From assembly GCF_036785885.1 (NCBI RefSeq), contig NC_092330.1:11318525-11382524 (forward strand): a DNA stretch of 64,000 bases, in the 5' to 3' direction. Both the position numbers and the translations under genes were made by a program. The notes beneath the pieces were generated by a model. The model was not told where the DNA came from. It made no database searches and saw only the letters and a program-made list of their open reading frames with translations. This stretch comes from Coffea arabica. Its lineage: Eukaryota; Streptophyta; Magnoliopsida; Gentianales; Rubiaceae. Shown here piece by piece: positions 39,273 to 64,000 of this stretch (its first letter is position 1; the number at the start of each line of letters is the position of its first letter).

Positions 39273-39318
39273 AGAGACAATCAAGGAGAAGTATCCAGAC
39301 TTGTTCATCGACCAAGGT

Positions 39319-42300: not shown

Positions 42301-43066
42301 TGGTCTGGGATTCGGACGAGCCATGAGATACACATAAGCTCGACCTAATAAGAGGTCTTGCTTGGCATACTTGTAGAGTATCGCCTAATAATAGACTTGT
42401 GGGCCCTTGGGGTGTACGGTGGACGGAGGAAAGTAAGTGGTGATCTACGGAAATGGAAATACCGACCCGGTTGACAGGAGGGTCAATGCGGGAAGGTATA
42501 CGAAGGACAACGGCAGATCAAGTGGAACTTAGCTCCTGAGAGCTACTATATCCTTGAATTGTTTCTGATTACTTTTCCTGTTTGAATAATTGATTGTTGA
42601 AGAGACGTGATTTTATTTATTAAACTTGGGTTTGTTAATTTGGCTAAGTGCTTGCATGTGTGTTCTTGGCCTCACGAGCGTTAGCTCACCCTATAGTTTT
42701 GTTTTCCTTAACAGGACCGACTCTTGGAGATATATGGAGAAACCATCCGTTGTAATTTTGTTAAGACTCCTGTTATAAAATTTGACTAGGCCCTGGTTCG
42801 CGTTGTACTTTTGGAGTTGTAAACTTGAAAAGTTTGGGCCCTGATGTGTATTTTGAATTCTAGTCGTTCATGATCACCCGATGTACTGGTTATACATTAA
42901 GTGACTTATTAAGCTTGAACGCTTCCGCATTATTGTATTCGTGTTGCTCTCATCGAAGTGTTTAGTTTGATTTTAAATTGAATGAAATCGCTTGAGTCCT
43001 GGCGAGAGCTGGGCAGGCGTCCGCGGATACCCTTTGGTCCGCCTTAGGGAGATGTGGGGCGTCACA
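39356..43066 (+). repeat. Tekay LTR shared by the two tandem copies
   Basis: 3711 bp. It serves as 3' LTR of the first copy and 5' LTR of the second. From about 40000 on it matches the first LTR at a constant offset of 9462 bp. Hairpins are at 41907-41928, 42114-42139 and 43015-43044. Confidence 0.9.
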
Positions 43067-43322
43067 GTTGGTATCAGAGCACTAGGTTAGAGGTCTATAT
43101 GGGAGACATATTGGATACTCTACCTTTAAGACTCGATATGGGATGACTTAATCCTACCCTAAGTGATACTTGAGGCGAGCTAGCAACTAAGTTAGTCCTA
43201 CCTCAAGTGACGATTGGGATGAACCAACGATTAAGTTAGGCATGCATTGCAGGATATTGGAATTAGGTAGTGATTTAAGTTTCTAACCTGAAAAATATTA
43301 TTATTGTTATTATTTTGCAGGG

Positions 43323-43844
43323 ATGGCTGATGGAAACGGAGCCCCGGCAGCTAATGGGAATGGTCATGCGAATGGTCATTATGTGCCTCTTAGGACTATT
43401 TACTACCGACCTCTAGCGGGAGGAGATCGAGTACGCTACTCACCGTATGATAGATACCCTCGATGTTCGTGTAGGTTGACTTTCGCCTACCCGGACTATT
43501 TGGTGCTTGCTTTGGACGACGAGCGTCGTCAGTTGGTGGATGCCAACCGCGATCTACAGGATGAGGTAGACGCGCTTAGGCAGATGGTGGGCGCTCAGGG
43601 TGAGCGGATTGCCGAGCTTGAGGAGGTGCTAGAGGGTGAGGTAGCCACGTCTGCAGTGGTTAACCAGGAGCTTCGGGATACTAGGGCTCGACTCACTAGG
43701 TTAGCACGAGATGTCCGTACCCGGGCTTTCGAGATGATGGTTGATGCTACTAGTCTGGTTGAGGACGCTACTGCAGTGCTTCCTGATGATGAGGAGGAGG
43801 ATCCCGAGGAGGAGGTTCCTCCTGATAGCCCCGCTATGGACTAG
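43323..43844 (+). CDS. extra open frame of Tekay copy 2
   Basis: A 173-residue product identical to the one at 33861-34382, again preceded by TTTTGCAG. See that entry for its make-up. Confidence 0.6.
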   Translation: MADGNGAPAANGNGHANGHYVPLRTIYYRPLAGGDRVRYSPYDRYPRCSCRLTFAYPDYLVLALDDERRQLVDANRDLQDEVDALRQMVGAQGERIAELEEVLEGEVATSAVVNQELRDTRARLTRLARDVRTRAFEMMVDATSLVEDATAVLPDDEEEDPEEEVPPDSPAMD

Positions 43845-44180
43845 GATCTTGGTCGTTGACTTTTTTTTGACTTTTGACTGGTACAGTTAGGACTAGTTAG
43901 GGTGACGCGAGTGCTGAGGCCATTGTATTTTGCATGCTTGTGTGGCCTACTTTTGGGCACTTGTTCTTACTTTAGTCTTCTGTGACTAAAAGTATACTTT
44001 TGAGCACCTGTGTGCTATATTTTGTGAATTGTCCCTAACTTGCTAATTGTACAAACATGACATGCTTATGAATGTAAATTATTGTTAATTTCAATGCTTT
44101 CCTGATTAGTCCTAAATTCGATATAATTCTTGTTTTCTGCTTAAATTAATTTATTTCTTGCACTAGGCACGTCTAGACTA

Positions 44181-47100: not shown

Positions 47101-47240
47101 TTTCTCAGAAGGAACTGAATTTGAGGCAACGTAGATGGATGGAATTTTTGGAAGATTATGACTGCATTATTAAGTACCACCCTGGAAAGGCCAATGTAGT
47201 GGCCGACGCTTTGAGCCGTCAGGTACAAATGGCAGGATTG
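44181..47240 (+). CDS. Tekay gag-pol of copy 2, incomplete
   Basis: Gag, protease, reverse transcriptase and RNase H as in copy 1 with no amino-acid difference seen; the element sequence ends at 47240 after the RNase H region. The open frame runs by chance about 190 bp further into MITE DNA, which has no coding meaning. This is a fossil fragment. Confidence 0.85.
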
Positions 47241-47440
47241 TACAAATATATCTTTTTCTCTTTTTTGTTAGAAATTATAAATTTTGGCAAATTTGTTCGG
47301 GTAGACCCGACCCGGAACCGAGACTCGTCGGGTCCGGATCCGGAACACCGAATAAAAGACCCGTCGGGTAAACGGGTCGGATCCGGGTCCGGGTCCGGAA
47401 TAATGAATTCCGGCCCGGACCTGGCCCGTTGACACCCCTA
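47241..47440. mobile_element. right 200 bp of a 5S MITE, left part missing
   Basis: It starts in the AT-rich middle of the MITE (TACAAATATATC) directly after Tekay sequence and ends with the normal right terminus ACACCCCTA. It belongs to the M2 type judged by its GGAACACC and ACCTGGCCC variants. Confidence 0.9.
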
Positions 47441-47475
47441 GGTGACCCCCTGGGAAATCCTCGTGTTGCACCCCT
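47441..47475 (+). pseudogene. 3' tail of a 5S gene at the array edge
   Basis: The target duplication GGTGACCC plus nucleotides 94-120 of 5S, with A at position 102, followed by the T-run. The 5' 93 nt are not present because the array begins inside the MITE. Confidence 0.9.
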
Positions 47476-47885
47476 CCCTTTTTTGTTTCGAAATCCAAAT
47501 TTCCCCTTCGTTCTTTATGCTGTAGTAATTTAGCTCCGTCGGAACGATTGCTTTATATTTTGCTTCTCATCGAAGCATGAAGGCGGATCTGAAGGCGCGA
47601 GACAAGTCAGGAACGGTACGGCTGGATCGAAGCCCGGATCGTCGGTCAAAGTTGTCGGCGCAAATGTATAAGCGCAAGCGTGAAGGATCAATTTCAGGAT
47701 AATTGAGAGTTGTGCGACGAGGGAAAAAAAAGGTGCAAAGCAACAAGAAAAAAATATAAAAGTAAATAAATAAAAGGATGTGAGGAAATTCATGAATTGA
47801 CGCTTAGAATGAATTCGGGTCCAGAAAAGCCAAACTGCTTCACAGGACGTGGCAGTTTAAAAGAATAAAGCGAAAGGAACATGGC

Positions 47886-48517
47886 GGGTGCGATCATACC
47901 AGCACTAATGCACCGGATCCCATCAGAACTTCGAAGTTAAGCGTGCTTGGGCGACAGTAGTACTAGGATGGGTGACCCTAGGCCGGTCAACGGGTCGGGT
48001 CTACACCCGGATCCGGATCGGATCCCTGGAATTTTTGCGGGTATGGGTAGGGATTTAATTCCGTTATCCGGATCCGATCCGTTTTTTCAAACAAAAAAAC
48101 GGGTCGGATACGGAATATAGTATTCCGACCCGTATTAGACCCGGATCCGGATATAAATGATTTAATAATTTATAAAAAATATATATTATCAATATAATTT
48201 GATTAGGATGATGTATTTGAGTAAAATCAATTTGATTTATTTTCTTATTTGGTTTTTTCTTTGCATTAGCTAGAAATTTGATTACAAATATATCTTTTTC
48301 TCTTTTTTGTTAGAAATTGTAAATTTTGGGAAATTTGTTCGGGTAGACCCGACCCGGATCCGAGACTCGCCGGGTCCGGATCCGAAACACCGAATAAAAG
48401 ACCCGTCGGGTAAACGGGTCGGATCCGGGTCCGGGTCCGGAATAATGAATTCCGGCCCGGACCCGGCCCGTTGACACCCCTAGGTGACCCCCTGGGAAAT
48501 CCTCGTGTTGCACCCCT
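47886..48517 (+). pseudogene. 5S rRNA gene interrupted by MITE, type M1 (first)
   Basis: The 5' part 47886-47978 is nucleotides 1-93; the 3' part after the duplicated GGTGACCC is 48491-48517. Relative to the intact genes it has T at 46, C at 70 and A at 102. Box A and the intermediate element are upstream of the insertion, and the insertion falls in box C. A normal 5S rRNA cannot be made without removing the 504-bp insert. Confidence 0.93.
47979..48482. mobile_element. hAT-type MITE in 5S, type M1
   Basis: 504 bp between two copies of the 8-bp target duplication GGTGACCC (47971-47978 and 48483-48490). Imperfect terminal inverted repeats: left TAGGCCGGTCAACGGGTC, right (reversed) TAGGGGTGTCAACGGGCC. 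Just inside are many GGATCCGG, GACCCG and GGGTCCGG words, like the subterminal repeats bound by hAT transposases; the middle is AT-rich (ATAAATGATTTAATAATTT). No transposase is encoded. The 8-bp duplication and TAGGG-type ends point to the hAT superfamily. A T5 run occurs 54-58 bp in and a T6 run shortly after. Confidence 0.93.
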
Positions 48518-48929
48518 CCCTTTTTTGTTTCGAAATCCAAATTTCCCCTTCGTTCTTTATGCTGTAGTAATTTAGCTCCGTCGGAACGATTGCTTTATAT
48601 TTTGCTTCTCATCGAAGCATGAAGGCGGATCTGAAGGCGCGAGACAAGTCAGGAACGGTACGGCTGGATCGAAGCCCGGATCGTCGGTCAAAGTTGTCGG
48701 CGCAAATGTATAAGCGCAAGCGTGAAGGATCAATTTCAGGATAATTGAGAGTTGCGCGACGAGGGAAAAAAAAATGGTGCAAATCAACAAGAAAAAAATG
48801 TAAAAGTAAATAAATAAAAGGATGAAGGGAAATTCTTGAATTGACGCTTAAAATGAATTCGGGTCCAGAAAAGCCACACTGCTTCACAGGACGGGGCAGT
48901 TTAAAAGAATAAAGCGAAAGGAACATGGC

Positions 48930-49049
48930 GGGTGCGATCATACCAGCACTAATGCACCGGATCCCATCAGAACTCCGAAGTTAAGCATGCTTGGGCGAGA
49001 GTAGTACTAGGATGGGTGACCCCTTGGGAAGTTCTCGTGTTGCACCCCT
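48930..49049 (+). rRNA. 5S rRNA gene, uninterrupted, variant
   Basis: A full 120-nt gene, but with three transitions relative to the other intact genes: A at 58 (in box A), T at 95 and T at 104. It is followed by CCCTTTTTT as terminator. TTTAAAAG lies at about -30 and C at -1, as in plant 5S promoters. It may be a less active or decaying copy. Confidence 0.9.
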
Positions 49050-49459
49050 CCCTTTTTTGTTTCGAAATCCAAATTTCCCCTTCGTTCTTTATGCTGTAGT
49101 AATTTAGCTCCGTCGGAACGATTGCTTTATATTTTGCTTCTCATCGAAGCATGAAGGCGGATCTGAAGGCGCGAGACAAGTCAGGAACGGTACGGCTGGA
49201 TCGAAGCCCGGATCGTCGGTCAAAGTTGTCGGCGCAAATGTATAAGCGCAAGCGTGAAGGATCAATTTCAGGATAATTGAGAGTTGTGCGACGAGTGAAA
49301 AAAAAGGTGCAAAGCAACAAGAAAAAAATATAAAAGTAAATAAATAAAAGGATGAGAGGAAATTCATGAATTGACGCTTAGAATGAATTCGGGTCCAGAA
49401 AAGCCAAACTGCTTCACAGGACGTGGCAGTTTAAAAGAATAAAGCGAAAGGAACATGGC

Positions 49460-50092
49460 GGGTGCGATCATACCAGCACTAATGCACCGGATCCCATCAG
49501 AACTCCGAAGTTAAGCGTGCTTGGGCGACAGTAGTACTAGGATGGGTGACCCTAGGCCTGTCAACGGGTCGGGTCTAGACCCGGATCCGGATCGGATCCC
49601 TGAAATTTTTGCGGGTATGGGTAGGGATTTAATTCCGTTATCCGGATCCGGATCCGTTTTTTCAAACAAAAAAACGGGTCGGATACGGAATATAGTATTC
49701 CGACCCGTATTAGACCCGGATCCGGATATAAATGATTTAATAATTTATAAAAAATATATATTATCAATATAATTTGATTAGGATGATGTATTTGAGTAAA
49801 ATCAATTTGATTTATTTTCTTATTTGGTTTTTTCTTTGCATTAGCTAGAAATTTGTTTACAAATATATCTTTTTCTCTTTTTTGTTAGAAATTATAAATT
49901 TTGGCAAATTTGTTCGGGTAGACCCGACCCGGAACCGAGACTCGTCGGGTCCGGATCCGGAACACCGAATAAAAGACCCGTCGGGTAAACGGGTCGGATC
50001 CGGGTCCGGGTCCGGAATAATGAATTCCGGCCCGGACCTGGCCCGTTGACACCCCTAGGTGACCCCCTGGGAAATCCTCGTGTTGCACCCCT
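49460..50092 (+). pseudogene. 5S rRNA gene interrupted by MITE, type M2 (first)
   Basis: The 5' part is 49460-49552, the 3' part 50066-50092. It keeps C at 46 like intact genes, with C at 70 and A at 102. M2 therefore looks like the type closest to the original interrupted gene. Confidence 0.93.
49553..50057. mobile_element. hAT-type MITE in 5S, type M2
   Basis: 505 bp. The left end TAGGCCTGTCAACGGG matches the right end at 14 of 16 positions, one better than the other types. It has its own variant GTCTAGACCC near the left end. Confidence 0.92.
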
Positions 50093-50502
50093 CCCTTTTT
50101 TGTTTCGAAATCCAAATTTCCCCTTCGTTCTTTATGCTGTAGTAATTTAGCTCCGTCGGAACGATTGCTTTATATTTTGCTTCTCATCGAAGCATGAAGG
50201 CGGATCTGAAGGCGCGAGACAAGTCAGGAACGGTACGGCTGGATCGAAGCCCGGATCGTCGGTCAAAGTTGTCGGCGCAAATGTATAAGCGCAAGCGTGA
50301 AGGATCAATTTCAGGATAATTGAGAGTTGTGCGACGAGGGAAAAAAAAGGTGCAAAGCAACAAGAAAAAAATATAAAAGTAAATAAATAAAAGAATGTGA
50401 GGAAATTCATGAATTGACGCTTAGAATGAATTCGGGTCCAGAAAAGCCAAACTGCTTCACAGGACGTGGCAGTTTAAAAGAATAAAGCGAAAGGAACATG
50501 GC

Positions 50503-51134
50503 GGGTGCGATCATACCAGCACTAATGCACCGGATCCCATCAGAACTTCGAAGTTAAGCGTGCTTGGGCGACAGTAGTACTAGGATGGGTGACCCTAGGC
50601 CGGTCAACGGGTCGGGTCTACACCCGGATCCGGATCGGATCCCTGGAATTTTTGCGGGTATGGGTAGGGATTTAATTCCGTTATCCGGATCCGATCCGTT
50701 TTTTCAAACAAAAAAACGGGTCGGATACGGAATATAGTATTCCGACCCGTATTAGACCCGGATCCGGATATAAATGATTTAATAATTTATAAAAAATATA
50801 TATTATCAATATAATTTGATTAGGATGATGTATTTGAGTAAAATCAATTTGATTTATTTTCTTATTTGGTTTTTTCTTTGCATTAGCTAGAAATTTGATT
50901 ACAAATATATCTTTTTCTCTTTTTTGTTAGAAATTGTAAATTTTGGGAAATTTGTTCGGGTAGACCCGACCCGGATCCGAGACTCGCCGGGTCCGGATCC
51001 GAAACACCGAATAAAAGACCCGTCGGGTAAACGGGTCGGATCCGGGTCCGGGTCCGGAATAATGAATTCCGGCCCGGACCCGGCCCGTTGACACCCCTAG
51101 GTGACCCCCTGGGAAATCCTCGTGTTGCACCCCT
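50503..51134 (+). pseudogene. 5S rRNA gene interrupted by MITE, type M1 (second)
   Basis: The 5' part is 50503-50595, the 3' part 51108-51134. Same diagnostic bases as the unit at 47886, which lies exactly 2617 bp to the left. Confidence 0.93.
50596..51099. mobile_element. hAT-type MITE in 5S, type M1
   Basis: 504 bp; target duplications at 50588-50595 and 51100-51107. Confidence 0.92.
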
Positions 51135-51546
51135 CCCTTTTTTGTTTCGAAATCCAAATTTCCCCTTCGTTCTTTATGCTGTAGTAATTTAGCTCCGTCG
51201 GAACGATTGCTTTATATTTTGCTTCTCATCGAAGCATGAAGGCGGATCTGAAGGCGCGAGACAAGTCAGGAACGGTACCGCTGGATCGAAGCCCGGATCG
51301 TCGGTCAAAGTTGTCGGCGCAAATGTATAAGCGCAAGCGTGAAAGATCAATTTCAGGATAATTGAGAGTTGCGCGACGAGGGAAAAAAAAATGGTGCAAA
51401 TCAACAAGAAAAAAATGTAAAAGTAAATAAATAAAAGGATGAGGAGAAATTCTTGAATTGACGCTTAAAATGAATTCGGGTCCAGAAAAGCCACACTGCT
51501 TCACAGGACGGGGCAGTTTAAAAGAATAAAGCGAAAGAAACATGTC

Positions 51547-51666
51547 GGGTGCGATCATACCAGCACTAATGCACCGGATCCCATCAGAACTCCGAAGTTA
51601 AGCGTGCTTGGGCGAGAGTAGTACTAGGATGGGTGACCCCCTGGGAAGTCCTCGTGTTGCACCCCT
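51547..51666 (+). rRNA. 5S rRNA gene, intact, canonical
   Basis: A 120-nt gene of the plant 5S type: GGGTGCGATCATACC at the 5' end pairing with GCACCCC at the 3' end (helix I), box A around 50-64, intermediate element GGCGAG around 67-72 and box C around 80-97, all undisturbed. Upstream is TTTAAAAG at about -30; downstream TTTTTT for Pol III termination. It has G at 70 and G at 102. It encodes the 5S RNA of the large ribosomal subunit. It is the first member of a five-unit higher-order repeat. Confidence 0.96.
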
Positions 51667-52077
51667 CCCTTTTTTGTTTCGAAATTCAAATTTCCCCTTC
51701 GTTCTTTATGCTGTAGTCATTTAGCTCCGTCGGAACGATTGCTTTATATTTTGCTTCTCATCGAAGCATGAAGGCGGATCTGAAGGCGCGAGACAAGTCA
51801 GGAACGGTACGGCTGGATCGAAGCCCGGATCGTCGGTCAAAGTTTTCGGCGCAAATGTATAAGCGCAAGCGTGAAGGATCAATTTCAGGATAATTGAGAG
51901 TTGCGCGACGAGGGAAAAAAAATGGTGCAAATCAACAAGAAAAAAATGTAAAAGTAAATAAATAAGAGGATGAGAGGAAATTCATGAATTGACGCTTAGA
52001 ATGAATTCGGGTCCAGAAAAGCCAAACTGCTTCACAGGACGTGACAGTTTAAAAGAATAAAGCGAAAGGAACATGGC

Positions 52078-52710
52078 GGGTGCGATCATACCAGCACTAA
52101 TGCACCGGATCCCATCAGAACTTCGAAGTTAAGCGTGCTTGGGCGACAGTAGTACTAGGATGGGTGACCCTAGGCCGGTCAACGGGTCGGGTCTACACCC
52201 GGATCCGGATCGGATCCCTGAAATTTTTGCGGGTATGGGTAGGGATTTAATTCCGTTATCCGGATCCGGATCCGTTTTTTCAAACAAAAAAACGGGTCGG
52301 ATACGGAATATAGTATTCCGACCCGTATTAGACCCGGATCCGGATATAAATGATTTAATAATTTATAAAAAATATATATTATCAATATAATTTGATTAGG
52401 ATGATGTATTTGAGTAAAATCAATTTGATTTATTTTCTTATTTGGTTTTTTCTTTGCATTAGCTAGAAATTTGTTTACAAATATATCTTTTTCTCTTTTT
52501 TGTTAGAAATTATAAATTTTGGGAAATTTGTTCGGGTAGACCCGACCCGGATCCGAGACTCGGCGGGTCTGGATCCGAAACACCGAATAAAAGACCCGTC
52601 GGGTAAACGGGTCGGATCCGGGTCCGGGTCCGGAATAATGAATTCCGGCCCGGACCCGGCCCGTTGACACCCCTAGGTGACCCCCTGGGAAATCCTCGTG
52701 TTGCACCCCT
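52078..52710 (+). pseudogene. 5S rRNA gene interrupted by MITE, type M3 (first)
   Basis: The 5' part is 52078-52170, the 3' part 52684-52710; T at 46, C at 70, A at 102. Its upstream spacer has GTGACAG instead of GTGGCAG. It directly follows an intact unit. Confidence 0.93.
52171..52675. mobile_element. hAT-type MITE in 5S, type M3
   Basis: 505 bp. Marked by GGCGGGTCTGGATCC in the right third. Confidence 0.92.
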
Positions 52711-53120
52711 CCCTTTTTTGTTTCGAAATCCAAATTTCCCCTTCGTTCTTTATGCTGTAGTAATTTAGCTCCGTCGGAACGATTGCTTTATATTTTGCTT
52801 CTCATCGAAGCATGAAGGCGGATCTGAAAGCGCGAGACAAGTCAGGAACGGTACGGCTGGATCGAAGCCCGGATCGTCGGTCAAAGTTGTCGGCGCAAAT
52901 GTATAAGCGCAAGCGTGAAGGATCAATTTCAGGATAATTGAGAGTTGTGCGACGAGGGAAAAAAAAGGTGCAAAGCAACAAGAAAAAAATATAAAAGTAA
53001 ATAAATAAAAGGATGTGAGGAAATTCATGAATTGACGCTTAGAATGAATTCGGGTCCAGAAAAGCCAAACTGCTTCACAGGACGTGGCAGTTTAAAAGAA
53101 TAAAGCGAAAGGAACATGGC

Positions 53121-53740
53121 GGGTGCGATCATACCAGCACTAATGCACCGGATCCCATCAGAACTTCGAAGTTAAGCGTGCTTGGGCGACAGTAGTACTA
53201 GGATGGGTGACCCTAGGCCGGTCAACGGGTCGGGTCTACACCCGGATCCGGATCGGATCCCTGGAATTTTTGCGGGTATGGGTAGGGATTTAATTCCGTT
53301 ATCCGGATCCGATCCGTTTTTTCAAACAAAAAAACGGGTCGGATACGGAATATAGTATTCCGACCCGTATTAGACCCGGATCCGGATATAAATGATTTAA
53401 TAATTTATAAAAAATATATATTATCAATATAATTTGATTAGGATGATGTATTTGAGTAAAATCAATTTGATTTATTTTCTTATTTGGTTTTTTCTTTGCA
53501 TTAGCTAGAAATTTGTTTACAAATATATCTTTTTCTCTTTTTTGTTAGAAATTATAAATTTTGGCAAATTTGTTCGGGTAGACCACAACCCGGATCCGAG
53601 ACTCGCCGGGTCCGGATCCGAAACACCGAATAAAAGACCCGTCGGATCCGGGTCCGGGTCCGGAATAATGAATTCCGGCCCAGACCCGGCCCGTTGACAC
53701 CCCTAGGTGACCCCCTGGGAAATCCTCGTGTTGCACCCCT
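53121..53740 (+). pseudogene. 5S rRNA gene interrupted by MITE, type M4 (first)
   Basis: The 5' part is 53121-53213, the 3' part 53714-53740; T at 46, C at 70, A at 102. Confidence 0.93.
53214..53705. mobile_element. hAT-type MITE in 5S, type M4, shortened
   Basis: 492 bp. A 13-bp stretch (GGGTAAACGGGTC) present in the other types is missing from the right subterminal region, and this copy alone reads GACCACAACCC where others read GACCCGACCC. Confidence 0.92.
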
Positions 53741-54150
53741 CCCTTTTTTGTTTCGAAATCAAAATTTTCCCTTCGTTCTTTATGCTGTAGTAATTTAGCT
53801 CCGTCGGAACGATTGCTTTATATTTTGCTTCTCATCGAAGCATGAAGGCGGATCTGAAGGCGCGAGACAAGTCAGGAACGGTACGGCTGGATCGAAGCCC
53901 GGATCGTCGGTCAAAGTTGTCGGCGCAAATGTATAAGCGCAAGCGTGAAGGATCAATTTCAGGATAATTGAGAGTTGTGCGACGAGGGAAAAAAAAGGTG
54001 CAAAGCAACAAGAAAAAAATATAAAAGTAAATAAATAAAAGGATGTGAGGAAATTCATGAATTGACGCTTAGAATGAATTCGGGTCCAGAAAAGCCAAAC
54101 TGCTTCACAGGACGTGGCAGTTTAAAAGAATAAAGCGAAAGGAACATGGC

Positions 54151-54783
54151 GGGTGCGATCATACCAGCACTAATGCACCGGATCCCATCAGAACTCCGAA
54201 GTTAAGCGTGCTTGGGCGACAGTAGTACTAGGATGGGTGACCCTAGGCCTGTCAACGGGTCGGGTCTACACCCGGATCCGGATCGGATCCCTGGAATTTT
54301 TGCGGGTAAGGGTAGGGATTTCATTCCGTTATCCGGATCCGGATCCGTTTTTTCAAACAAAAAAACGGGTCGGATACGGAATATAGTATTCCGACCCGTA
54401 TTAGACCCGGATCCGGATATAAATGATTTAATAATTTATAAAAAATATATATTATCAATATAATTTGATTAGGATGATGTATTTGAGTAAAATCAATTTG
54501 ATTTATTTTCTTATTTGGTTTTTTCTTTGCATTAGCTAGAAATTTGTTTACAAATATATCTTTTTCTCTTTTTTGTTAGAAATTATAAATTTTGGCAAAT
54601 TTGTTCGGGTAGACCCGACCCGGAACCGAGACTCGTCGGGTCCGGATCCGGAACACCGAATAAAAGACCCGTCGGGTAAACGGGTCGGATCCGGGTCCGG
54701 GTCCGGAATAATGAATTCCGGCCCGGACCTGGCCCGTTGACACCCCTAGGTGACCCCCTGGGAAATCCTCGTGTTGCACCCCT
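54151..54783 (+). pseudogene. 5S rRNA gene interrupted by MITE, type M2 (second)
   Basis: The 5' part is 54151-54243, the 3' part 54757-54783; C at 46, C at 70, A at 102. Confidence 0.93.
54244..54748. mobile_element. hAT-type MITE in 5S, type M2
   Basis: 505 bp, left end TAGGCCTG. It carries GGGTAAGGGT and GATTTCATTCC, shared with the M2 copies at 58934 and 63624 but not with 49553. Confidence 0.92.
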
Positions 54784-55193
54784 CCCTTTTTTGTTTCGAA
54801 ATCCAAATTTCCCCTTCGTTCTTTATGCTGTAGTAATTTAGCTCCGTCGGAACGATTGCTTTATATTTTGCTTCTCATCGAAGCATGAAGGCGGATCTGA
54901 AGGCGCGAGACAAGTCAGGAACGGTACGGCTGGATCGAAGCCCGGATCGTCGGTCAAAGTTGTCGGCGCAAATGTATAAGCGCAAGCGTGAAGGATCAAT
55001 TTCAGGATAATTGAGAGTTGTGCGACGAGGGAAAAAAAAGGTGCAAAGCAACAAGAAAAAAATATAAAAGTAAATAAATAAAAGGATGTGAGGAAATTCA
55101 TGAATTGACGCTTAGAATGAATTCGGGTCCAGAAAAGCCAAACTGCTTCACAGGACGTGGCAGTTTAAAAGAATAAAGCGAAAGGAACATGGC

Positions 55194-55825
55194 GGGTGCG
55201 ATCATACCAGCACTAATGCACCGGATCCCATCAGAACTTCGAAGTTAAGCGTGCTTGGGCGACAGTAGTACTAGGATGGGTGACCCTAGGCCGGTCAACG
55301 GGTCGGGTCTACACCCGGATCCGGATCGGATCCCTGGAATTTTTGCGGGTATGGGTAGGGATTTAATTCCGTTATCCGGATCCGATCCGTTTTTTCAAAC
55401 AAAAAAACGGGTCGGATACGGAATATAGTATTCCGACCCGTATTAGACCCGGATCCGGATATAAATGATTTAATAATTTATAAAAAATATATATTATCAA
55501 TATAATTTGATTAGGATGATGTATTTGAGTAAAATCAATTTGATTTATTTTCTTATTTGGTTTTTTCTTTGCATTAGCTAGAAATTTGTTTACAAATATA
55601 TCTTTTTCTCTTTTTTGTTAGAAATTATAAATTTTGGCAAATTTGTTCGGGTAGACCCGACCCGGATCCGAGACTCGCCGGGTCCGGATCCGGAACACCG
55701 AATAAAAGACCCGTCGGGTAAACGGGTCGGATCCGGGTCCGGGTCCGGAATAATGAATTCCGGCCCGGACCCGGCCCGTTGACACCCCTAGGTGACCCCC
55801 TGGGAAATCCTCGTGTTGCACCCCT
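55194..55825 (+). pseudogene. 5S rRNA gene interrupted by MITE, type M1 (third)
   Basis: The 5' part is 55194-55286, the 3' part 55799-55825. As in all M1 units the next gene is intact. Confidence 0.93.
55287..55790. mobile_element. hAT-type MITE in 5S, type M1
   Basis: 504 bp. It differs from other M1 copies by GTTTACAAAT and GGAACACC in the right half, variants of M2, hinting at gene conversion or crossover within the MITE. Confidence 0.92.
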
Positions 55826-56237
55826 CCCTTTTTTGTTTCGAAATCCAAATTTCCCCTTCGTTCTTTATGCTGTAGTAATTTAGCTCCGTCGGAACGATTG
55901 CTTTATATTTTGCTTCTCATCGAAGCATGAAGGCGGATCTGAAGGCGCGAGACAAGTCAGGAACGGTACCGCTGGATCGAAGCCCGGATCGTCGGTCAAA
56001 GTTGTCGGCGCAAATGTATAAGCGCAAGCGTGAAGGATCAATTTCAGGATAATTGAGAGTTGCGCGACGAGGGAAAAAAAAATGGTGCAAATCAACAAGA
56101 AAAAAATGTAAAAGTAAATAAATAAAAGGATGAGGAGAAATTCTTGAATTGACGCTTAAAATGAATTCGGGTCCAGAAAAGCCACACTGCTTCACAGGAC
56201 GGGGCAGTTTAAAAGAATAAAGCGAAAGAAACATGTC

Positions 56238-56357
56238 GGGTGCGATCATACCAGCACTAATGCACCGGATCCCATCAGAACTCCGAAGTTAAGCGTGCTT
56301 GGGCGAGAGTAGTACTAGGATGGGTGACCCCCTGGGAAGTCCTCGTGTTGCACCCCT
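56238..56357 (+). rRNA. 5S rRNA gene, intact, canonical
   Basis: Same as the gene at 51547, 4691 bp away, including the ATGTC upstream variant (other units have ATGGC just before +1). Confidence 0.96.
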
Positions 56358-56768
56358 CCCTTTTTTGTTTCGAAATTCAAATTTCCCCTTCGTTCTTTAT
56401 GCTGTAGTCATTTAGCTCCGTCGGAACGATTGCTTTATATTTTGCTTCTCATCGAAGCATGAAGGCGGATCTGAAGGCGCGAGACAAGTCAGGAACGGTA
56501 CGGCTGGATCGAAGCCCGGATCGTCGGTCAAAGTTTTCGGCGCAAATGTATAAGCGCAAGCGTGAAGGATCAATTTCAGGATAATTGAGAGTTGCGCGAC
56601 GAGGGAAAAAAAATGGTGCAAATCAACAAGAAAAAAATGTAAAAGTAAATAAATAAGAGGATGAGAGGAAATTCATGAATTGACGCTTAGAATGAATTCG
56701 GGTCCAGAAAAGCCAAACTGCTTCACAGGACGTGACAGTTTAAAAGAATAAAGCGAAAGGAACATGGC

Positions 56769-57401
56769 GGGTGCGATCATACCAGCACTAATGCACCGGA
56801 TCCCATCAGAACTTCGAAGTTAAGCGTGCTTGGGCGACAGTAGTACTAGGATGGGTGACCCTAGGCCGGTCAACGGGTCGGGTCTACACCCGGATCCGGA
56901 TCGGATCCCTGAAATTTTTGCGGGTATGGGTAGGGATTTAATTCCGTTATCCGGATCCGGATCCGTTTTTTCAAACAAAAAAACGGGTCGGATACGGAAT
57001 ATAGTATTCCGACCCGTATTAGACCCGGATCCGGATATAAATGATTTAATAATTTATAAAAAATATATATTATCAATATAATTTGATTAGGATGATGTAT
57101 TTGAGTAAAATCAATTTGATTTATTTTCTTATTTGGTTTTTTCTTTGCATTAGCTAGAAATTTGTTTACAAATATATCTTTTTCTCTTTTTTGTTAGAAA
57201 TTATAAATTTTGGGAAATTTGTTCGGGTAGACCCGACCCGGATCCGAGACTCGGCGGGTCTGGATCCGAAACACCGAATAAAAGACCCGTCGGGTAAACG
57301 GGTCGGATCCGGGTCCGGGTCCGGAATAATGAATTCCGGCCCGGACCCGGCCCGTTGACACCCCTAGGTGACCCCCTGGGAAATCCTCGTGTTGCACCCC
57401 T
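56769..57401 (+). pseudogene. 5S rRNA gene interrupted by MITE, type M3 (second)
   Basis: The 5' part is 56769-56861, the 3' part 57375-57401. Confidence 0.93.
56862..57366. mobile_element. hAT-type MITE in 5S, type M3
   Basis: 505 bp, same variants as the copy at 52171. Confidence 0.92.
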
Positions 57402-57811
57402 CCCTTTTTTGTTTCGAAATCCAAATTTCCCCTTCGTTCTTTATGCTGTAGTAATTTAGCTCCGTCGGAACGATTGCTTTATATTTTGCTTCTCATCGAA
57501 GCATGAAGGCGGATCTGAAAGCGCGAGACAAGTCAGGAACGGTACGGCTGGATCGAAGCCCGGATCGTCGGTCAAAGTTGTCGGCGCAAATGTATAAGCG
57601 CAAGCGTGAAGGATCAATTTCAGGATAATTGAGAGTTGTGCGACGAGGGAAAAAAAAGGTGCAAAGCAACAAGAAAAAAATATAAAAGTAAATAAATAAA
57701 AGGATGTGAGGAAATTCATGAATTGACGCTTAGAATGAATTCGGGTCCAGAAAAGCCAAACTGCTTCACAGGACGTGGCAGTTTAAAAGAATAAAGCGAA
57801 AGGAACATGGC

Positions 57812-58430
57812 GGGTGCGATCATACCAGCACTAATGCACCGGATCCCATCAGAACTTCGAAGTTAAGCGTGCTTGGGCGACAGTAGTACTAGGATGGGTG
57901 ACCCTAGGCCGGTCAACGGGTCGGGTCTACACCCGGATCCGGATCGGATCCCTGGAATTTTTGCGGGTATGGGTAGGGATTTAATTCCGTTATCCGGATC
58001 CGATCCGTTTTTTCAAACAAAAAAACGGGTCGGATACGGAATATAGTATTCCGACCCGTATTAGACCCGGATCCGGATATAAATGATTTAATAATTTATA
58101 AAAAATATATATTATCAATATAATTTGATTAGGATGATGTATTTGAGTAAAATCAATTTGATTTATTTTCTTATTTGGTTTTTTCTTTGCATTAGCTAGA
58201 AATTTGTTTACAAATATATCTTTTTCTCTTTTTTGTTAGAAATTATAAATTTTGGCAAATTTGTTCGGGTAGACCCGACCCGGATCCGAGACTCGCCGGG
58301 TCCGGATCCGAAACACCGAATAAAAGACCCGTCGGATCCGGGTCCGGGTCCGGAATAATGAATTCCGGCCCAGACCCGGCCCGTTGACACCCCTAGGTGA
58401 CCCCCTGGGAAATCCTCGTGTTGCACCCCT
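57812..58430 (+). pseudogene. 5S rRNA gene interrupted by MITE, type M4 (second)
   Basis: The 5' part is 57812-57904, the 3' part 58404-58430. Confidence 0.93.
57905..58395. mobile_element. hAT-type MITE in 5S, type M4, shortened
   Basis: 491 bp with the 13-bp loss of its type; it keeps the normal GACCCGACCC. Confidence 0.92.
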
Positions 58431-58840
58431 CCCTTTTTTGTTTCGAAATCAAAATTTTCCCTTCGTTCTTTATGCTGTAGTAATTTAGCTCCGTCGGAAC
58501 GATTGCTTTATATTTTGCTTCTCATCGAAGCATGAAGGCGGATCTGAAGGCGCGAGACAAGTCAGGAACGGTACGGCTGGATCGAAGCCCGAATCGTCGG
58601 TCAAAGTTGTCGGCGCAAATGTATAAGCGCAAGCGTGAAGGATCAATTTCAGGATAATTGAGAGTTGTGCGACGAGGGAAAAAAAAGGTGCAAAGCAACA
58701 AGAAAAAAATATAAAAGTAAATAAATAAAAGGATGTGAGGAAATTCATGAATTGACGCTTAGAATGAATTCGGGTCCAGAAAAGCCAAACTGCTTCACAG
58801 GACGTGGCAGTTTAAAAGAATAAAGCGAAAGGAACATGGC

Positions 58841-59473
58841 GGGTGCGATCATACCAGCACTAATGCACCGGATCCCATCAGAACTCCGAAGTTAAGCGTG
58901 CTTGGGCGACAGTAGTACTAGGATGGGTGACCCTAGGCCTGTCAACGGGTCGGGTCTACACCCGGATCCGGATCGGATCCCTAAAATTTTTGCGGGTAAG
59001 GGTAGGGATTTCATTCCGTTATCCGGATCCGGATCCGTTTTTTCAAACAAAAAAACGGGTCGGATACGGAATATAGTATTCCGACCCGTATTAGACCCGG
59101 ATCCGGATATAAATGATTTAATAATTTATAAAAAATATATATTATCAATATAATTTGATTAGGATGATGTATTTGAGTAAAATCAATTTGATTTATTTTC
59201 TTATTTGGTTTTTTCTTTGCATTAGCTAGAAATTTGTTTACAAATATATCTTTTTCTCTTTTTTGTTAGAAATTATAAATTTTGGGAAATTTGTTCGGGT
59301 AGACCCGACCCGGATCCGAGACTCGGCGGGTCTGGATCCGAAACACCGAATAAAAGACCCGTCGGGTAAACGGGTCGGATCCGGGTCCGGGTCCGGAATA
59401 ATGAATTCCGGCCCGGACCCGGCCCGTTGACACCCCTAGGTGACCCCCTGGGAAATCCTCGTGTTGCACCCCT
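58841..59473 (+). pseudogene. 5S rRNA gene interrupted by MITE, type M2 (third)
   Basis: The 5' part is 58841-58933, the 3' part 59447-59473; C at 46. Confidence 0.93.
58934..59438. mobile_element. hAT-type MITE in 5S, type M2 left half with M3-like right half
   Basis: 505 bp. The left end has M2 variants plus CCCTAAAATTT, but the right third reads GGCGGGTCTGGATCC as in M3. This mosaic suggests exchange between units inside the MITE. Confidence 0.9.
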
Positions 59474-59883
59474 CCCTTTTTTGTTTCGAAATCCAAATTT
59501 CCCCTTCGTTCTTTATGCTGTAGTAATTTAGCTCCGTCGGAACGATTGATTTATATTTTGCTTCTCATCGAAGCATGAAGGCGGATCTGAAAGCGCGAGA
59601 CAAGTCAGGAACGGTACGGCTGGATCGAAGCCCGGATCGTCGGTCAAAGTTGTCGGCGCAAATGTATAAGCGCAAGCGTGAAGGATCAATTTCAGGATAA
59701 TTGAGAGTTGTGCGACGAGGGAAAAAAAAGGTGCAAAGCAACAAGAAAAAAATATAAAAGTAAATAAATAAAAGGATGTGAGGAAATTCATGAATTGACG
59801 CTTAGAATGAATTCGGGTCCAGAAAAGCCAAACTGCTTCACAGGACGTGGCAGTTTAAAAGAATAAAGCGAAAGGAACATGGC

Positions 59884-60515
59884 GGGTGCGATCATACCAG
59901 CACTAATGCACCGGATCCCATCAGAACTTCGAAGTTAAGCGTGCTTGGGCGACAGTAGTACTAGGATGGGTGACCCTAGGCCGGTCAACGGGTCGGGTCT
60001 ACACCCGGATCCGGATCGGATCCCTGGAATTTTTGCGGGTATGGGTAGGGATTTAATTCCGTTATCCGGATCCGATCCGTTTTTTCAAACAAAAAAACGG
60101 GTCGGATACGGAATATAGTATTCCGACCCGTATTAGACCCGGATCCGGATATAAATGATTTAATAATTTATAAAAAATATATATTATCAATATAATTTGA
60201 TTAGGATGATGTATTTGAGTAAAATCAATTTGATTTATTTTCTTATTTGGTTTTTTCTTTGCATTAGCTAGAAATTTGATTACAAATATATCTTTTTCTC
60301 TTTTTTGTTAGAAATTGTAAATTTTGGGAAATTTGTTCGGGTAGACCCGACCCGGATCCGAGACTCGCCGGGTCCGGATCCGAAACACCGAATAAAAGAC
60401 CCGTCGGGTAAACGGGTCGGATCCGGGTCCGGGTCCGGAATAATGAATTCCGGCCCGGACCCGGCCCGTTGACACCCCTAGGTGACCCCCTGGGAAATCC
60501 TCGTGTTGCACCCCT
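59884..60515 (+). pseudogene. 5S rRNA gene interrupted by MITE, type M1 (fourth)
   Basis: The 5' part is 59884-59976, the 3' part 60489-60515. Confidence 0.93.
59977..60480. mobile_element. hAT-type MITE in 5S, type M1
   Basis: 504 bp with the M1 GATTACAAAT variant. Confidence 0.92.
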
Positions 60516-60927
60516 CCCTTTTTTGTTTCGAAATCCAAATTTCCCCTTCGTTCTTTATGCTGTAGTAATTTAGCTCCGTCGGAACGATTGCTTTATATTT
60601 TGCTTCTCATCGAAGCATGAAGGCGGATCTGAAGGCGCGAGACAAGTCAGGAACGGTACCGCTGGATCGAAGCCCGGATCGTCGGTCAAAGTTGTCGGCG
60701 CAAATGTATAAGCGCAAGCGTGAAGGATCAATTTCAGGATAATTGAGAGTTGCGCGACGAGGGAAAAAAAAATGGTGCAAATCAACAAGAAAAAAATGTA
60801 AAAGTAAATAAATAAAAGGATGAGGAGAAATTCTTGAATTGACGCTTAAAATGAATTCGGGTCCAGAAAAGCCACACTGCTTCACAGGACGGGGCAGTTT
60901 AAAAGAATAAAGCGAAAGAAACATGTC

Positions 60928-61047
60928 GGGTGCGATCATACCAGCACTAATGCACCGGATCCCATCAGAACTCCGAAGTTAAGCGTGCTTGGGCGAGAGT
61001 AGTACTAGGATGGGTGACCCCCTGGGAAGTCCTCGTGTTGCACCCCT
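60928..61047 (+). rRNA. 5S rRNA gene, intact, canonical
   Basis: The third canonical copy, 4690 bp after the one at 56238, with the same ATGTC upstream variant. Confidence 0.96.
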
Positions 61048-61458
61048 CCCTTTTTTGTTTCGAAATTCAAATTTCCCCTTCGTTCTTTATGCTGTAGTCA
61101 TTTAGCTCCGTCGGAACGATTGCTTTATATTTTGCTTCTCATCGAAGCATGAAGGCGGATCTGAAGGCGCGAGACAAGTCAGGAACGGTACGGCTGGATC
61201 GAAGCCCGGATCGTCGGTCAAAGTTTTCGGCGCAAATGTATAAGCGCAAGCGTGAAGGATCAATTTCAGGATAATTGAGAGTTGCGCGACGAGGGAAAAA
61301 AAATGGTGCAAATCAACAAGAAAAAAATGTAAAAGTAAATAAATAAGAGGATGAGAGGAAATTCATGAATTGACGCTTAGAATGAATTCGGGTCCAGAAA
61401 AGCCAAACTGCTTCACAGGACGTGACAGTTTAAAAGAATAAAGCGAAAGGAACATGGC

Positions 61459-62091
61459 GGGTGCGATCATACCAGCACTAATGCACCGGATCCCATCAGA
61501 ACTTCGAAGTTAAGCGTGCTTGGGCGACAGTAGTACTAGGATGGGTGACCCTAGGCCGGTCAACGGGTCGGGTCTACACCCGGATCCGGATCGGATCCCT
61601 GAAATTTTTGCGGGTATGGGTAGGGATTTAATTCCGTTATCCGGATCCGGATCCGTTTTTTCAAACAAAAAAACGGGTCGGATACGGAATATAGTATTCC
61701 GACCCGTATTAGACCCGGATCCGGATATAAATGATTTAATAATTTATAAAAAATATATATTATCAATATAATTTGATTAGGATGATGTATTTGAGTAAAA
61801 TCAATTTGATTTATTTTCTTATTTGGTTTTTTCTTTGCATTAGCTAGAAATTTGTTTACAAATATATCTTTTTCTCTTTTTTGTTAGAAATTATAAATTT
61901 TGGGAAATTTGTTCGGGTAGACCCGACCCGGATCCGAGACTCGGCGGGTCTGGATCCGAAACACCGAATAAAAGACCCGTCGGGTAAACGGGTCGGATCC
62001 GGGTCCGGGTCCGGAATAATGAATTCCGGCCCGGACCCGGCCCGTTGACACCCCTAGGTGACCCCCTGGGAAATCCTCGTGTTGCACCCCT
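61459..62091 (+). pseudogene. 5S rRNA gene interrupted by MITE, type M3 (third)
   Basis: The 5' part is 61459-61551, the 3' part 62065-62091. Confidence 0.93.
61552..62056. mobile_element. hAT-type MITE in 5S, type M3
   Basis: 505 bp, as at 52171 and 56862. Confidence 0.92.
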
Positions 62092-62501
62092 CCCTTTTTT
62101 GTTTCGAAATCCAAATTTCCCCTTCGTTCTTTATGCTGTAGTAATTTAGCTCCGTCGGAACGATTGCTTTATATTTTGCTTCTCATCGAAGCATGAAGGC
62201 GGATCTGAAAGCGCGAGACAAGTCAGGAACGGTACGGCTGGATCGAAGCCCGGATCGTCGGTCAAAGTTGTCGGCGCAAATGTATAAGCGCAAGCGTGAA
62301 GGATCAATTTCAGGATAATTGAGAGTTGTGCGACGAGGGAAAAAAAAGGTGCAAAGCAACAAGAAAAAAATATAAAAGTAAATAAATAAAAGGATGTGAG
62401 GAAATTCATGAATTGACGCTTAGAATGAATTCGGGTCCAGAAAAGCCAAACTGCTTCACAGGACGTGGCAGTTTAAAAGAATAAAGCGAAAGGAACATGG
62501 C

Positions 62502-63120
62502 GGGTGCGATCATACCAGCACTAATGCACCGGATCCCATCAGAACTTCGAAGTTAAGCGTGCTTGGGCGACAGTAGTACTAGGATGGGTGACCCTAGGCC
62601 GGTCAACGGGTCGGGTCTACACCCGGATCCGGATCGGATCCCTGGAATTTTTGCGGGTATGGGTAGGGATTTAATTCCGTTATCCGGATCCGATCCGTTT
62701 TTTCAAACAAAAAAACGGGTCGGATACGGAATATAGTATTCCGACCCGTATTAGACCCGGATCCGGATATAAATGATTTAATAATTTATAAAAAATATAT
62801 ATTATCAATATAATTTGATTAGGATGATGTATTTGAGTAAAATCAATTTGATTTATTTTCTTATTTGGTTTTTTCTTTGCATTAGCTAGAAATTTGTTTA
62901 CAAATATATCTTTTTCTCTTTTTTGTTAGAAATTATAAATTTTGGCAAATTTGTTCGGGTAGACCCGACCCGGATCCGAGACTCGCCGGGTCCGGATCCG
63001 AAACACCGAATAAAAGACCCGTCGGATCCGGGTCCGGGTCCGGAATAATGAATTCCGGCCCAGACCCGGCCCGTTGACACCCCTAGGTGACCCCCTGGGA
63101 AATCCTCGTGTTGCACCCCT
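62502..63120 (+). pseudogene. 5S rRNA gene interrupted by MITE, type M4 (third)
   Basis: The 5' part is 62502-62594, the 3' part 63094-63120. Confidence 0.93.
62595..63085. mobile_element. hAT-type MITE in 5S, type M4, shortened
   Basis: 491 bp, matching the copy at 57905. Confidence 0.92.
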
Positions 63121-63530
63121 CCCTTTTTTGTTTCGAAATCAAAATTTTCCCTTCGTTCTTTATGCTGTAGTAATTTAGCTCCGTCGGAACGATTGCTTTA
63201 TATTTTGCTTCTCATCGAAGCATGAAGGCGGATCTGAAGGCGCGAGACAAGTCAGGAACGGTACGGCTGGATCGAAGCCCGGATCGTCGGTCAAAGTTGT
63301 CGGCGCAAATGTATAAGCGCAAGCGTGAAGGATCAATTTCAGGATAATTGAGAGTTGTGCGACGAGGGAAAAAAAAGGTGCAAAGCAACAAGAAAAAAAT
63401 ATAAAAGTAAATAAATAAAAGGATGTGAGGAAATTCATGAATTGACGCTTAGAATGAATTCGGGTCCAGAAAAGCCAAACTGCTTCACAGGACGTGGCAG
63501 TTTAAAAGAATAAAGCGAAAGGAACATGGC

Positions 63531-64000
63531 GGGTGCGATCATACCAGCACTAATGCACCGGATCCCATCAGAACTCCGAAGTTAAGCGTGCTTGGGCGAC
63601 AGTAGTACTAGGATGGGTGACCCTAGGCCTGTCAACGGGTCGGGTCTACACCCGGATCCGGATCGGATCCCTAAAATTTTTGCGGGTAAGGGTAGGGATT
63701 TCATTCCGTTATCCGGATCCGGATCCGTTTTTTCAAACAAAAAAACGGGTCGGATACGGAATATAGTATTCCGACCCGTATTAGACCCGGATCCGGATAT
63801 AAATGATTTAATAATTTATAAAAAATATATATTATCAATATAATTTGATTAGGATGATGTATTTGAGTAAAATCAATTTGATTTATTTTCTTATTTGGTT
63901 TTTTCTTTGCATTAGCTAGAAATTTGTTTACAAATATATCTTTTTCTCTTTTTTGTTAGAAATTATAAATTTTGGCAAATTTGTTCGGGTAGACCCGACC
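63531..64000 (+). pseudogene. 5S rRNA gene interrupted by MITE, type M2, cut by window end
   Basis: The 5' part 63531-63623 is complete (C at 46, C at 70); the 3' part lies beyond the window. Confidence 0.92.
63624..64000. mobile_element. hAT-type MITE in 5S, type M2, left 377 bp
   Basis: It has the CCCTAAAATTT variant of the copy at 58934. The window ends within it. Confidence 0.92.

What the first reader, a model, noticed from the sequence alone, without database searches (positions are those of the whole stretch)
47241..64000. A hAT MITE fixed inside 5S rRNA genes and amplified with the array
Fourteen of eighteen 5S genes carry the same roughly 505-bp MITE at the same base (after nt 93) with the same 8-bp duplication GGTGACCC. 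A single insertion therefore spread through the tandem array by unequal exchange or conversion, so most genes here cannot encode normal 5S rRNA. rDNA is normally homogenised toward functional copies; here the interrupted form is winning locally. I do not know of a described case of this kind, though 5S arrays with transposons in spacers and 5S-derived retroelements (Cassandra) are known.
Basis: partly seen in the sequence, partly recalled or inferred. Interest (0 to 1): 0.92.

Follow-up and report, generated by a model that had tools for sequence, protein, structure and literature searches.

The report
Transposon-split 5S genes dominate coffee array
In what is very likely Arabica coffee, 63 of 101 5S ribosomal RNA genes read on one chromosome are split at the same base by the same small transposon, likely because a single old insertion was copied by the array's own recombination, so these genes are predicted to be dead weight carried between intact ones.

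Summary
In the window 14 of 18 5S genes carry the same 491-505-bp MITE after nt 93, with the same 8-bp duplication GGTGACCC. The array runs on to 30 genes, 22 split. The genome is very likely Coffea arabica. The same insertion occurs at all ten 5S-bearing spots sampled in and just beyond a ~1-Mb 5S locus 10 Mb away on the same chromosome (41 of 71 genes split), and in blocks at 19.8 and 24.0-24.1 Mb. Eight 5S genes from four spots on a second chromosome, probably the homoeolog, have none. nt70 is C in 63 of 63 split genes and nt102 is A in 62 of 63 split 3' parts; 37 of 38 intact genes have G at both. So this is one insertion spread by exchange, not repeated targeting. Intact genes almost always stand alone between split ones (1 of 90 neighbour pairs is intact-intact): composite repeats of mostly one intact plus one to four split units. 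Split copies are predicted to be non-functional; expression, raw reads and the diploid parents could not be tested.

The parts
47241..47440 (+). 3' 200 nt of a MITE, left edge of the 5S block, fused to gypsy
47441..47474 (+). TSD copy plus 3' end of the split 5S gene whose 5' part is lost
47886..47978 (+). split 5S gene, nt 1-93
47979..48482 (+). MITE 504 bp
48483..48516 (+). second GGTGACCC and 5S nt 94-119
48930..49048 (+). intact 5S gene (changes at nt 58, 95, 104)
49460..49552 (+). split 5S gene, nt 1-93
49553..50057 (+). MITE 505 bp
50058..50091 (+). second TSD and 5S 3' end
50503..50595 (+). split 5S gene, nt 1-93
50596..51099 (+). MITE 504 bp
51100..51133 (+). second TSD and 5S 3' end
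51547..51665 (+). intact canonical 5S gene; start of the first 4.69-kb higher-order repeat
52078..52170 (+). split 5S gene, nt 1-93
52171..52675 (+). MITE 505 bp
52676..52709 (+). second TSD and 5S 3' end
53121..53213 (+). split 5S gene, nt 1-93
53214..53705 (+). MITE 492 bp (13-bp deletion)
53706..53739 (+). second TSD and 5S 3' end
54151..54243 (+). split 5S gene, nt 1-93 (nt46 C lineage)
54244..54748 (+). MITE 505 bp, query
54749..54782 (+). second TSD and 5S 3' end
55194..55286 (+). split 5S gene, nt 1-93
55287..55790 (+). MITE 504 bp
55791..55824 (+). second TSD and 5S 3' end
56238..56356 (+). intact canonical 5S gene; start of the second higher-order repeat
56769..56861 (+). split 5S gene, nt 1-93
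56862..57366 (+). MITE 505 bp
57367..57400 (+). second TSD and 5S 3' end
57812..57904 (+). split 5S gene, nt 1-93
57905..58395 (+). MITE 491 bp
58396..58429 (+). second TSD and 5S 3' end
58841..58933 (+). split 5S gene, nt 1-93
58934..59438 (+). MITE 505 bp
59439..59472 (+). second TSD and 5S 3' end
59884..59976 (+). split 5S gene, nt 1-93
59977..60480 (+). MITE 504 bp
60481..60514 (+). second TSD and 5S 3' end
60928..61046 (+). intact canonical 5S gene; start of the third higher-order repeat
61459..61551 (+). split 5S gene, nt 1-93
61552..62056 (+). MITE 505 bp
62057..62090 (+). second TSD and 5S 3' end
62502..62594 (+). split 5S gene, nt 1-93
62595..63085 (+). MITE 491 bp
63086..63119 (+). 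second TSD and 5S 3' end
63531..63623 (+). split 5S gene, nt 1-93
63624..64000 (+). MITE, cut by the window end; continues in L001
45012..47240 (+). gypsy flank that is repeated 100% identically right of the block (74441-76669 in window coordinates)

Best explanation
This is a tandem 5S ribosomal RNA gene array, very likely on one chromosome of Coffea arabica, in which 63 of 101 genes read are split at nt 93 by one small DNA-transposon insertion (a MITE) that was likely inserted once and then multiplied by the array's own recombination rather than by further transposition. The split units now alternate with intact ones in composite repeats (mostly one intact gene plus one to four split units), so the dead gene with its MITE would work like an enlarged spacer that hitch-hikes with the functional gene. 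Shown: same insertion point and duplication in nearly all copies read; markers linked to the insert; mosaic units and higher-order repeats; presence in several blocks on the same chromosome; absence in eight sampled genes of a second chromosome. Inferred: unequal exchange or replication-based amplification as the copying step; loss of function of split genes (the internal promoter is left, but nt 94-119 are displaced and in two units checked the first run of five T lies at position 147, so a Pol III transcript would likely be a ~150-nt chimera without the 3' strand of helix I); displacement of the window's block from the main locus into a gypsy element as a separate later event.
For: Same position and TSD: 13 of 13 complete copies in the window; over the block and the samples together both sides are GGTGACCC in 54 of 57 copies with both ends read, three differ by one base on one side. 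Linked markers: nt70 C in 63 of 63 split genes, nt102 A in 62 of 63 split 3' parts; nt70 G in 37 of 38 and nt102 G in 38 of 38 intact genes. Two split lineages: nt46 and a TIR base are linked in all 22 copies of the window block (14 T-G, 8 C-T); of the sampled copies that fit the script's motif (37 of 41) 23 are T-G, 10 C-T and 4 C-G, the last likely intermediates or recombinants. Exchange: spacers of split and intact units share 4 polymorphisms; one intact gene in L021 carries the split-lineage markers at nt46 and nt70 but the intact-lineage nt102, as a crossover would leave. Amplification: units 51547, 56238, 60928 and 70328 are identical; the first two 4.69-kb higher-order repeats are 99.7% identical (16 substitutions in 4,690). 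Scale: MITE hits at 11.37-11.39, 19.80-19.81, 21.48-22.42 and 24.10-24.13 Mb, all 41 listed on C21, and 23.99-24.12 Mb; 41 of 71 sampled genes split. Alternation: 1 intact-intact pair of 90 neighbours against 11.4 expected, 0 of 2000 shuffles as low. Canonical intact genes: 24 of 29 complete ones in the samples, 5 of 8 in the block. Second chromosome: no insert in 8 genes at 4 spots.
Against: Gene-to-spacer diversity does not differ between split and intact units (about 0.36 and 0.37 when the two gene parts, made on 97 of the 101 genes, are weighted by length), so there is no sign of relaxed constraint in split gene halves; recent spread may explain it, or the test lacks power. The alternation statistic treats clonally amplified units as independent. 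Only the best 40 of 732 candidates were scored, so copies on other chromosomes or outside 5S cannot be excluded. Spots were sampled, not the whole locus; one spot (L024) has more intact than split units (7 to 6) and five are even or nearly so. One split 3' part has C at nt102. No reads, RNA or parental genomes were tested.
Confidence: 0.86

Rival explanations
1. Repeated, site-specific insertion: a transposon family that targets the same 5S site again and again, as Pokey, Dada or R elements do in their target genes.
For: Same site in every copy read, and DNA transposons with such habits exist (PMC3706591, PMC3849761; passages read).
Against: Split genes share two substitutions outside the duplication, nt70 (63 of 63) and nt102 (62 of 63), that 37 of 38 intact genes lack; independent insertions would hit the common intact form. 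Copies lie in higher-order repeats that carry spacer and insert variants together.
Confidence: 0.04
2. Assembly artefact: one rare interrupted unit was multiplied by a tangled assembly graph.
For: Tandem repeats of 99-100% identity are hard to assemble, and the window block sits in near-identical gypsy copies.
Against: The assembly size matches the published HiFi/hifiasm assembly of 1,198 Mb made from DNA cut to 20 kb (PMC11018527, passages), so reads would span many 0.5-1.0-kb units; split units occur at many places, on both strands, with their own variants.
Confidence: 0.05
3. A relic: the split-bearing arrays of this chromosome are silent heterochromatic satellite, and working 5S genes lie elsewhere, so selection never saw the insertion.
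For: The window block is a 27-kb island inside gypsy copies 10 Mb from the main locus; PMC10805892 cites FISH reports of two further 5S loci (section 6 read); a canonical gene also exists on C22.
Against: 24 of 29 complete intact genes in the main-locus samples are exactly canonical, while 1 of 8 on C22 is; that is not what a dead array next to a live one would look like, though samples are small.
Confidence: 0.3
4. Split genes are functional: the insert is removed from the RNA or tolerated as an expansion segment.
For: The internal promoter region is upstream of the insert and kept (promoter positions recalled).
Against: In two split units checked, runs of five and six T begin at insert positions 54 and 104-105 (gene positions 147 and 197-198) and would end Pol III transcripts; no splice system for 5S rRNA is known to me (recalled).
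Confidence: 0.02

Closest known systems
Pokey and its MITEs mPok in Daphnia 28S rRNA genes (PMC3849761, passages)
   Same: Non-autonomous DNA-transposon copies inside rRNA genes of a tandem array, coexisting with intact units under concerted evolution.
   Different: Pokey is piggyBac-like with TTAA duplications and keeps inserting at its site; here a presumed hAT MITE with an 8-bp duplication likely arrived once and was copied by the array.
Dada transposons in U6, U1 and tRNA genes (PMC3706591, passages)
   Same: DNA transposon inside multicopy small RNA genes.
   Different: Dada has 6-7-bp duplications and true target choice; here the marker test speaks against targeting, and an autonomous partner was not sought.
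Mutsu retrotransposon in zebrafish 5S genes (mentioned in PMC3706591 and PMC11202950, passages)
   Same: A mobile element inside 5S genes.
   Different: Non-LTR retrotransposon with its own target specificity.
Tribolium freemani 5S clusters with truncated genes tied to a Jockey-like element (PMC11202950, passages)
   Same: Pseudogene copies homogenised together with an element in a 5S array.
   Different: Genes with a 30-bp deletion, 32 of 113 copies, beside a retroelement and a satellite; here a MITE inside the gene body, 63 of 101 genes read.
Cassandra TRIM elements (PMC7215508, passages)
   Same: Links 5S sequence and mobile DNA in tandem arrays.
   Different: 5S is inside the element's LTR; here the element is inside a true 5S array.

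Membership tests
hAT-type MITE | 8-bp target site duplication | tested here: met
   GGTGACCC on both sides in 13 of 13 complete window copies and in 54 of 57 copies of block and samples with both ends read
hAT-type MITE | Terminal inverted repeats | tested here: met
   Ends TAGGCCTGTCAACGGG / TAGGGGTGTCAACGGG; 19 of the first 26 positions agree in one copy; likeness to hAT ends is recalled, not tested
hAT-type MITE | Short and without transposase | tested here: met
   491-511 bp; in one copy six ORFs of 40 aa or more, longest 83 aa reading in from the gene; no family search made
hAT-type MITE | Further copies elsewhere with other duplications, and an autonomous hAT partner | tested here: inconclusive
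   One search scored only 40 of 732 candidates; all 41 matches listed lie on C21 in the 5S-bearing regions. Only short weak matches in 264 kb outside the array. Partner not sought
Site-specific rDNA transposons (Pokey, Dada, R elements) | Independent insertions at one target site | tested here: not met
   Copies share linked flanking substitutions nt70 (63 of 63) and nt102 (62 of 63)
Cassandra TRIM | 5S sequence within long terminal repeats of the element | tested here: not met
   The element lies within the gene and has inverted ends; intact 5S genes are full-length in a tandem array with spacers of 411-414 bp
Functional 5S rDNA array | Tandem canonical 5S genes with spacer | tested here: met
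   Intact genes at 115.2 bits; 24 of 29 complete intact genes canonical in main-locus samples
Functional 5S rDNA array | Transcription | not testable with these tools
   No reads or RNA available

The most novel reading that the evidence does not exclude
A ribosomal gene killed by a transposon has been turned into the structural spacer of a new composite 5S repeat and has taken over a megabase 5S locus: the array now propagates as intact-plus-split blocks, so concerted evolution spreads the broken form instead of purging it, and the split copies still make a short chimeric 5S-MITE Pol III RNA.
Probability: 0.35. Interest if true: 0.85.

Novelty: new variant of a known kind. Interest (0 to 1): 0.74.

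Why it matters
rRNA gene arrays are the textbook case of homogenisation toward working copies. Here the broken form is in the majority among the genes read, across a megabase locus, and because it is marked by an insert and two base changes, exchange, conversion and selection in an rDNA array can be followed unit by unit. It asks how many intact 5S genes a plant needs, and whether composite repeats let dead units ride with live ones. It also gives a 1.0-kb versus 0.5-kb marker that may tell coffee subgenomes and accessions apart. A published C. arabica assembly paper speaks of a conserved ~0.5-kb 5S monomer and does not mention split units in the section read (PMC10805892).

Tried and rejected
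Genome-wide count of split junctions by pattern, a 5S spacer search and an Rfam 5S search of the own genome did not complete (machine busy; pattern; a pattern for intact junctions: 25; spacer: 77, 79, 81, 83, 85, 111, 114; RF00001: 89, 94, 104, 108, 113, 118). The intact-gene search was busy and then gave nothing because very common words are skipped, so it says nothing about copy number. The left-junction search was busy and answered in 105. The split junction was not found in viral contigs (none expected). A plain alignment of whole units misplaced the insert (its 'fixed differences' and split-intact distances are not used); the part-by-part alignments replace it. The motif counts missed genes with changes in the motif or at spot edges (67 and 97 genes); the alignment-based recount finds four more (71 and 101) and is used for all fractions.

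I considered that both block edges mark a mobile unit: each gypsy/5S junction has one full-length match, itself, among the 40 candidates scored (of 1,587 and 3,746), so this block was probably placed once; the edges lie in the MITE with no clear shared motif, and the 2,229-bp gypsy duplication at its sides may just reflect the tandem gypsy copies. Dating was dropped: MITE copies differ from their consensus by 4.5 changes on average (57 copies), but exchange between copies makes a clock reading unsafe; the founding polyploidy is put at 350,000-610,000 years (abstract of PMC11018527).

Literature: I saw no report of a MITE fixed in 5S genes of a plant among the titles and abstract starts listed (25 of 51 papers; 1 of 1; 11 of 12; 0; 9 of 9; 2 of 2; 6 of 6; 10 of 10; 20 of 968); one search looked for coffee assemblies. 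Passages only were read of PMC12222929 (it mentions insertions in Hydnora 5S arrays in general terms), PMC7215508, PMC3706591, PMC3849761, PMC11202950 and PMC11018527 (with its abstract); section 6 and passages of PMC10805892. Only open-licence papers are held.

Full report
Observation. Rfam finds 18 5S genes in 47886-63648, all on the + strand, 4 full matches and 14 whose 3' end does not fit (alignments of 7). A script shows that these 14 are cut after nt 93 by an insert that begins TAGGC and ends CCCCTA; the 13 with both ends in the window are 491-505 bp long and have GGTGACCC on both sides. The insert has inverted ends (19 of the first 26 positions agree in one copy) and, in one copy, no ORF over 83 aa. 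An 8-bp duplication with such ends fits a hAT MITE; that family name rests on recalled features, since copies outside 5S could not be searched in full and a transposase partner was not sought.

Where it is. The window is C21:11318525-11382524 of a 1,197,963,845-base assembly. C21 is 45,802,622 and C22 62,661,540 bases long; both lengths occur as contig lengths of Coffea arabica proteins found with the window's gypsy polyprotein, and the total fits the 1,198-Mb HiFi assembly of PMC11018527 (passages; that paper counts 132 scaffolds, the tool 131 contigs). So the plant is very likely Coffea arabica. PMC10805892 (section 6) places assembled 5S loci on chromosome 11 of both subgenomes in another assembly; that C21 and C22 are this pair is an inference.

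The block. With 200 kb of right flank the array has 30 genes, 22 split and 8 intact, and ends at 74440 in window coordinates; no other 5S gene is found in the rest of that flank. Both edges lie inside MITEs and abut a Ty3-gypsy element that stands in tandem with a 9,462-bp period on both sides; 2,229 bp of gypsy (45012-47240) recur at 74441-76669. Each junction has a single full-length match, itself, among the candidates scored. So this looks like an island of 5S units placed once into gypsy DNA. Two full copies of a 4.69-kb higher-order repeat (intact plus four split) differ by 16 substitutions and one indel; a third, cut by the window end, differs from them by 2-3 substitutions and an indel over 3.07 kb.

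The wider picture. A search with one MITE lists 41 matches, all on C21: this block, 19.80-19.81 Mb, 21.48-22.42 Mb and 24.10-24.13 Mb; only 40 of 732 candidates were scored. Further identical MITE pieces lie at 23.99-24.12 Mb. I sampled 15 spots between 21.10 and 22.75 Mb: 5S genes are present at all nine spots from 21.35 to 22.29 Mb and at 22.75 Mb, absent at 21.10, 21.25, 22.45, 22.50 and 22.60 Mb. The ten 5S-bearing spots hold 71 genes, 41 split and 30 intact; one of the intact ones is cut by the end of its spot. By spot the split:intact counts are L027 2:2, L028 3:0, L021 8:4, L029 2:2, L022 7:4, L030 2:2, L023 7:5, L031 2:2, L024 6:7, L035 2:2. An earlier motif count gave 40 of 67 because four genes with changes in the motif or at spot edges were missed. 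If the stretch 21.35-22.42 Mb is filled at this rate, it would hold roughly 1,300 units, some 750 of them split; this is extrapolation.

One insertion, not many. Over block and samples nt70 is C in 63 of 63 split genes and nt102 is A in 62 of 63 split 3' parts (one has C); nt70 is G in 37 of 38 and nt102 G in 38 of 38 intact genes. These bases lie outside the duplication, so they mark the one gene that was hit, or changes fixed in the founder soon after. Both sides of the insert read GGTGACCC in 54 of 57 copies with both ends read; three differ by one base on one side; in six more the far end was not read. Two lineages of split gene differ at nt46 and at a TIR base, linked in all 22 copies of the window block (14 and 8); in the samples 23 and 10 copies fit and 4 are of a third type, out of 37 that the motif caught. 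The exceptional intact gene, in L021, has the split-type nt46 and nt70 but intact-type nt102: a crossover between a split and an intact gene within nt 71-101 explains it best.

How it spread. Spacers of split and intact units are mixed: they share four polymorphisms, and an intact unit can be only two changes from a split one. Identical units recur up to 19 kb apart, and higher-order spacing of 4,691 bp recurs in the blocks at 19.80 and 24.11 Mb (coordinates). Unequal exchange or replication-based amplification of multi-unit blocks fits; the exact process is inferred. Intact genes rarely neighbour each other, 1 of 90 pairs against 11.4 in shuffles, none of 2000 as low; since units are copied in blocks, this shows composite repeats rather than a test of selection.

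What it does. The split gene keeps nt 1-93, thus the internal promoter region (position recalled). In the two split units checked the first run of five T is at position 147 and the first of six at 197-198; in the intact unit checked it is at 124, just past the gene. A Pol III transcript would likely end within the insert and lack the 3' strand of helix I, so a normal 5S rRNA is not expected. Intact genes persist in canonical form: 24 of 29 complete ones in the samples and 5 of 8 in the window's block. Against a simple story, gene-to-spacer diversity is alike in split and intact units (0.36 and 0.37, worked out from then on 97 genes), so I see no relaxed constraint in the split halves.

The other chromosome. 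Of 23 spots fetched on C22, four, at 32.0, 32.5, 33.0 and 34.0 Mb, carry 5S genes: 8 genes of at least 113 nt, none split; one 36-nt end piece in L056 was left out. Units there are 89-90% identical to C21 units (L054 and L055). One of the 8 is canonical, the others have 2-8 changes (Rfam scores 84-112 for the seven in L054-L056). So the insertion is absent in this small sample of the other array, in keeping with an event private to one lineage.

Verdict. The kind of thing, mobile DNA inside tandem RNA genes, is known; the passive spread of one MITE-broken 5S gene to a majority of the genes read in a large plant locus, as alternating composite repeats, is a new variant as far as the searches show.

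Noticed in passing
30545-47240 and L002-L004 (window coordinates 74441-99146): Ty3-gypsy element in head-to-tail tandem copies of 9,462 bp, 99.9-100% identical, on both sides of the 5S block; one search shows pairs of matches ~9.5 kb apart also at C21:24.42-24.43 Mb and C11:48.30-48.31 Mb.
   Followed up: partly
C21:19.80-19.81 Mb and 24.10-24.13 Mb: MITE blocks that share the 4,691-bp spacing and identical MITEs with the window block, on opposite strands; perhaps copies of one displaced piece.
   Followed up: partly
L054, L055, L056 (C22): 5S genes of the second chromosome carry 2-8 changes from canonical in 7 of 7 cases there, while L058 has a canonical one; parts of that array may be decaying.
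   Followed up: partly
L027 and L035 (C21:21.35 and 22.75 Mb): Genes at these two outer spots are more diverged than inside the locus, split and intact alike (two intact genes at 96.6-98.3% in L035), as if the edges of the array escape homogenisation.
   Followed up: no
window coordinates 184772-210405 and 226503-252138 (right flank, L013-L019): A 25.6-kb direct duplication at 99.8% identity to the right of the array.
   Followed up: no
21464-22093: AT-rich palindromic tandem region.
   Followed up: no
23313-30409: Two 3.2-kb direct copies at 94% identity just left of the gypsy tandem.
   Followed up: no
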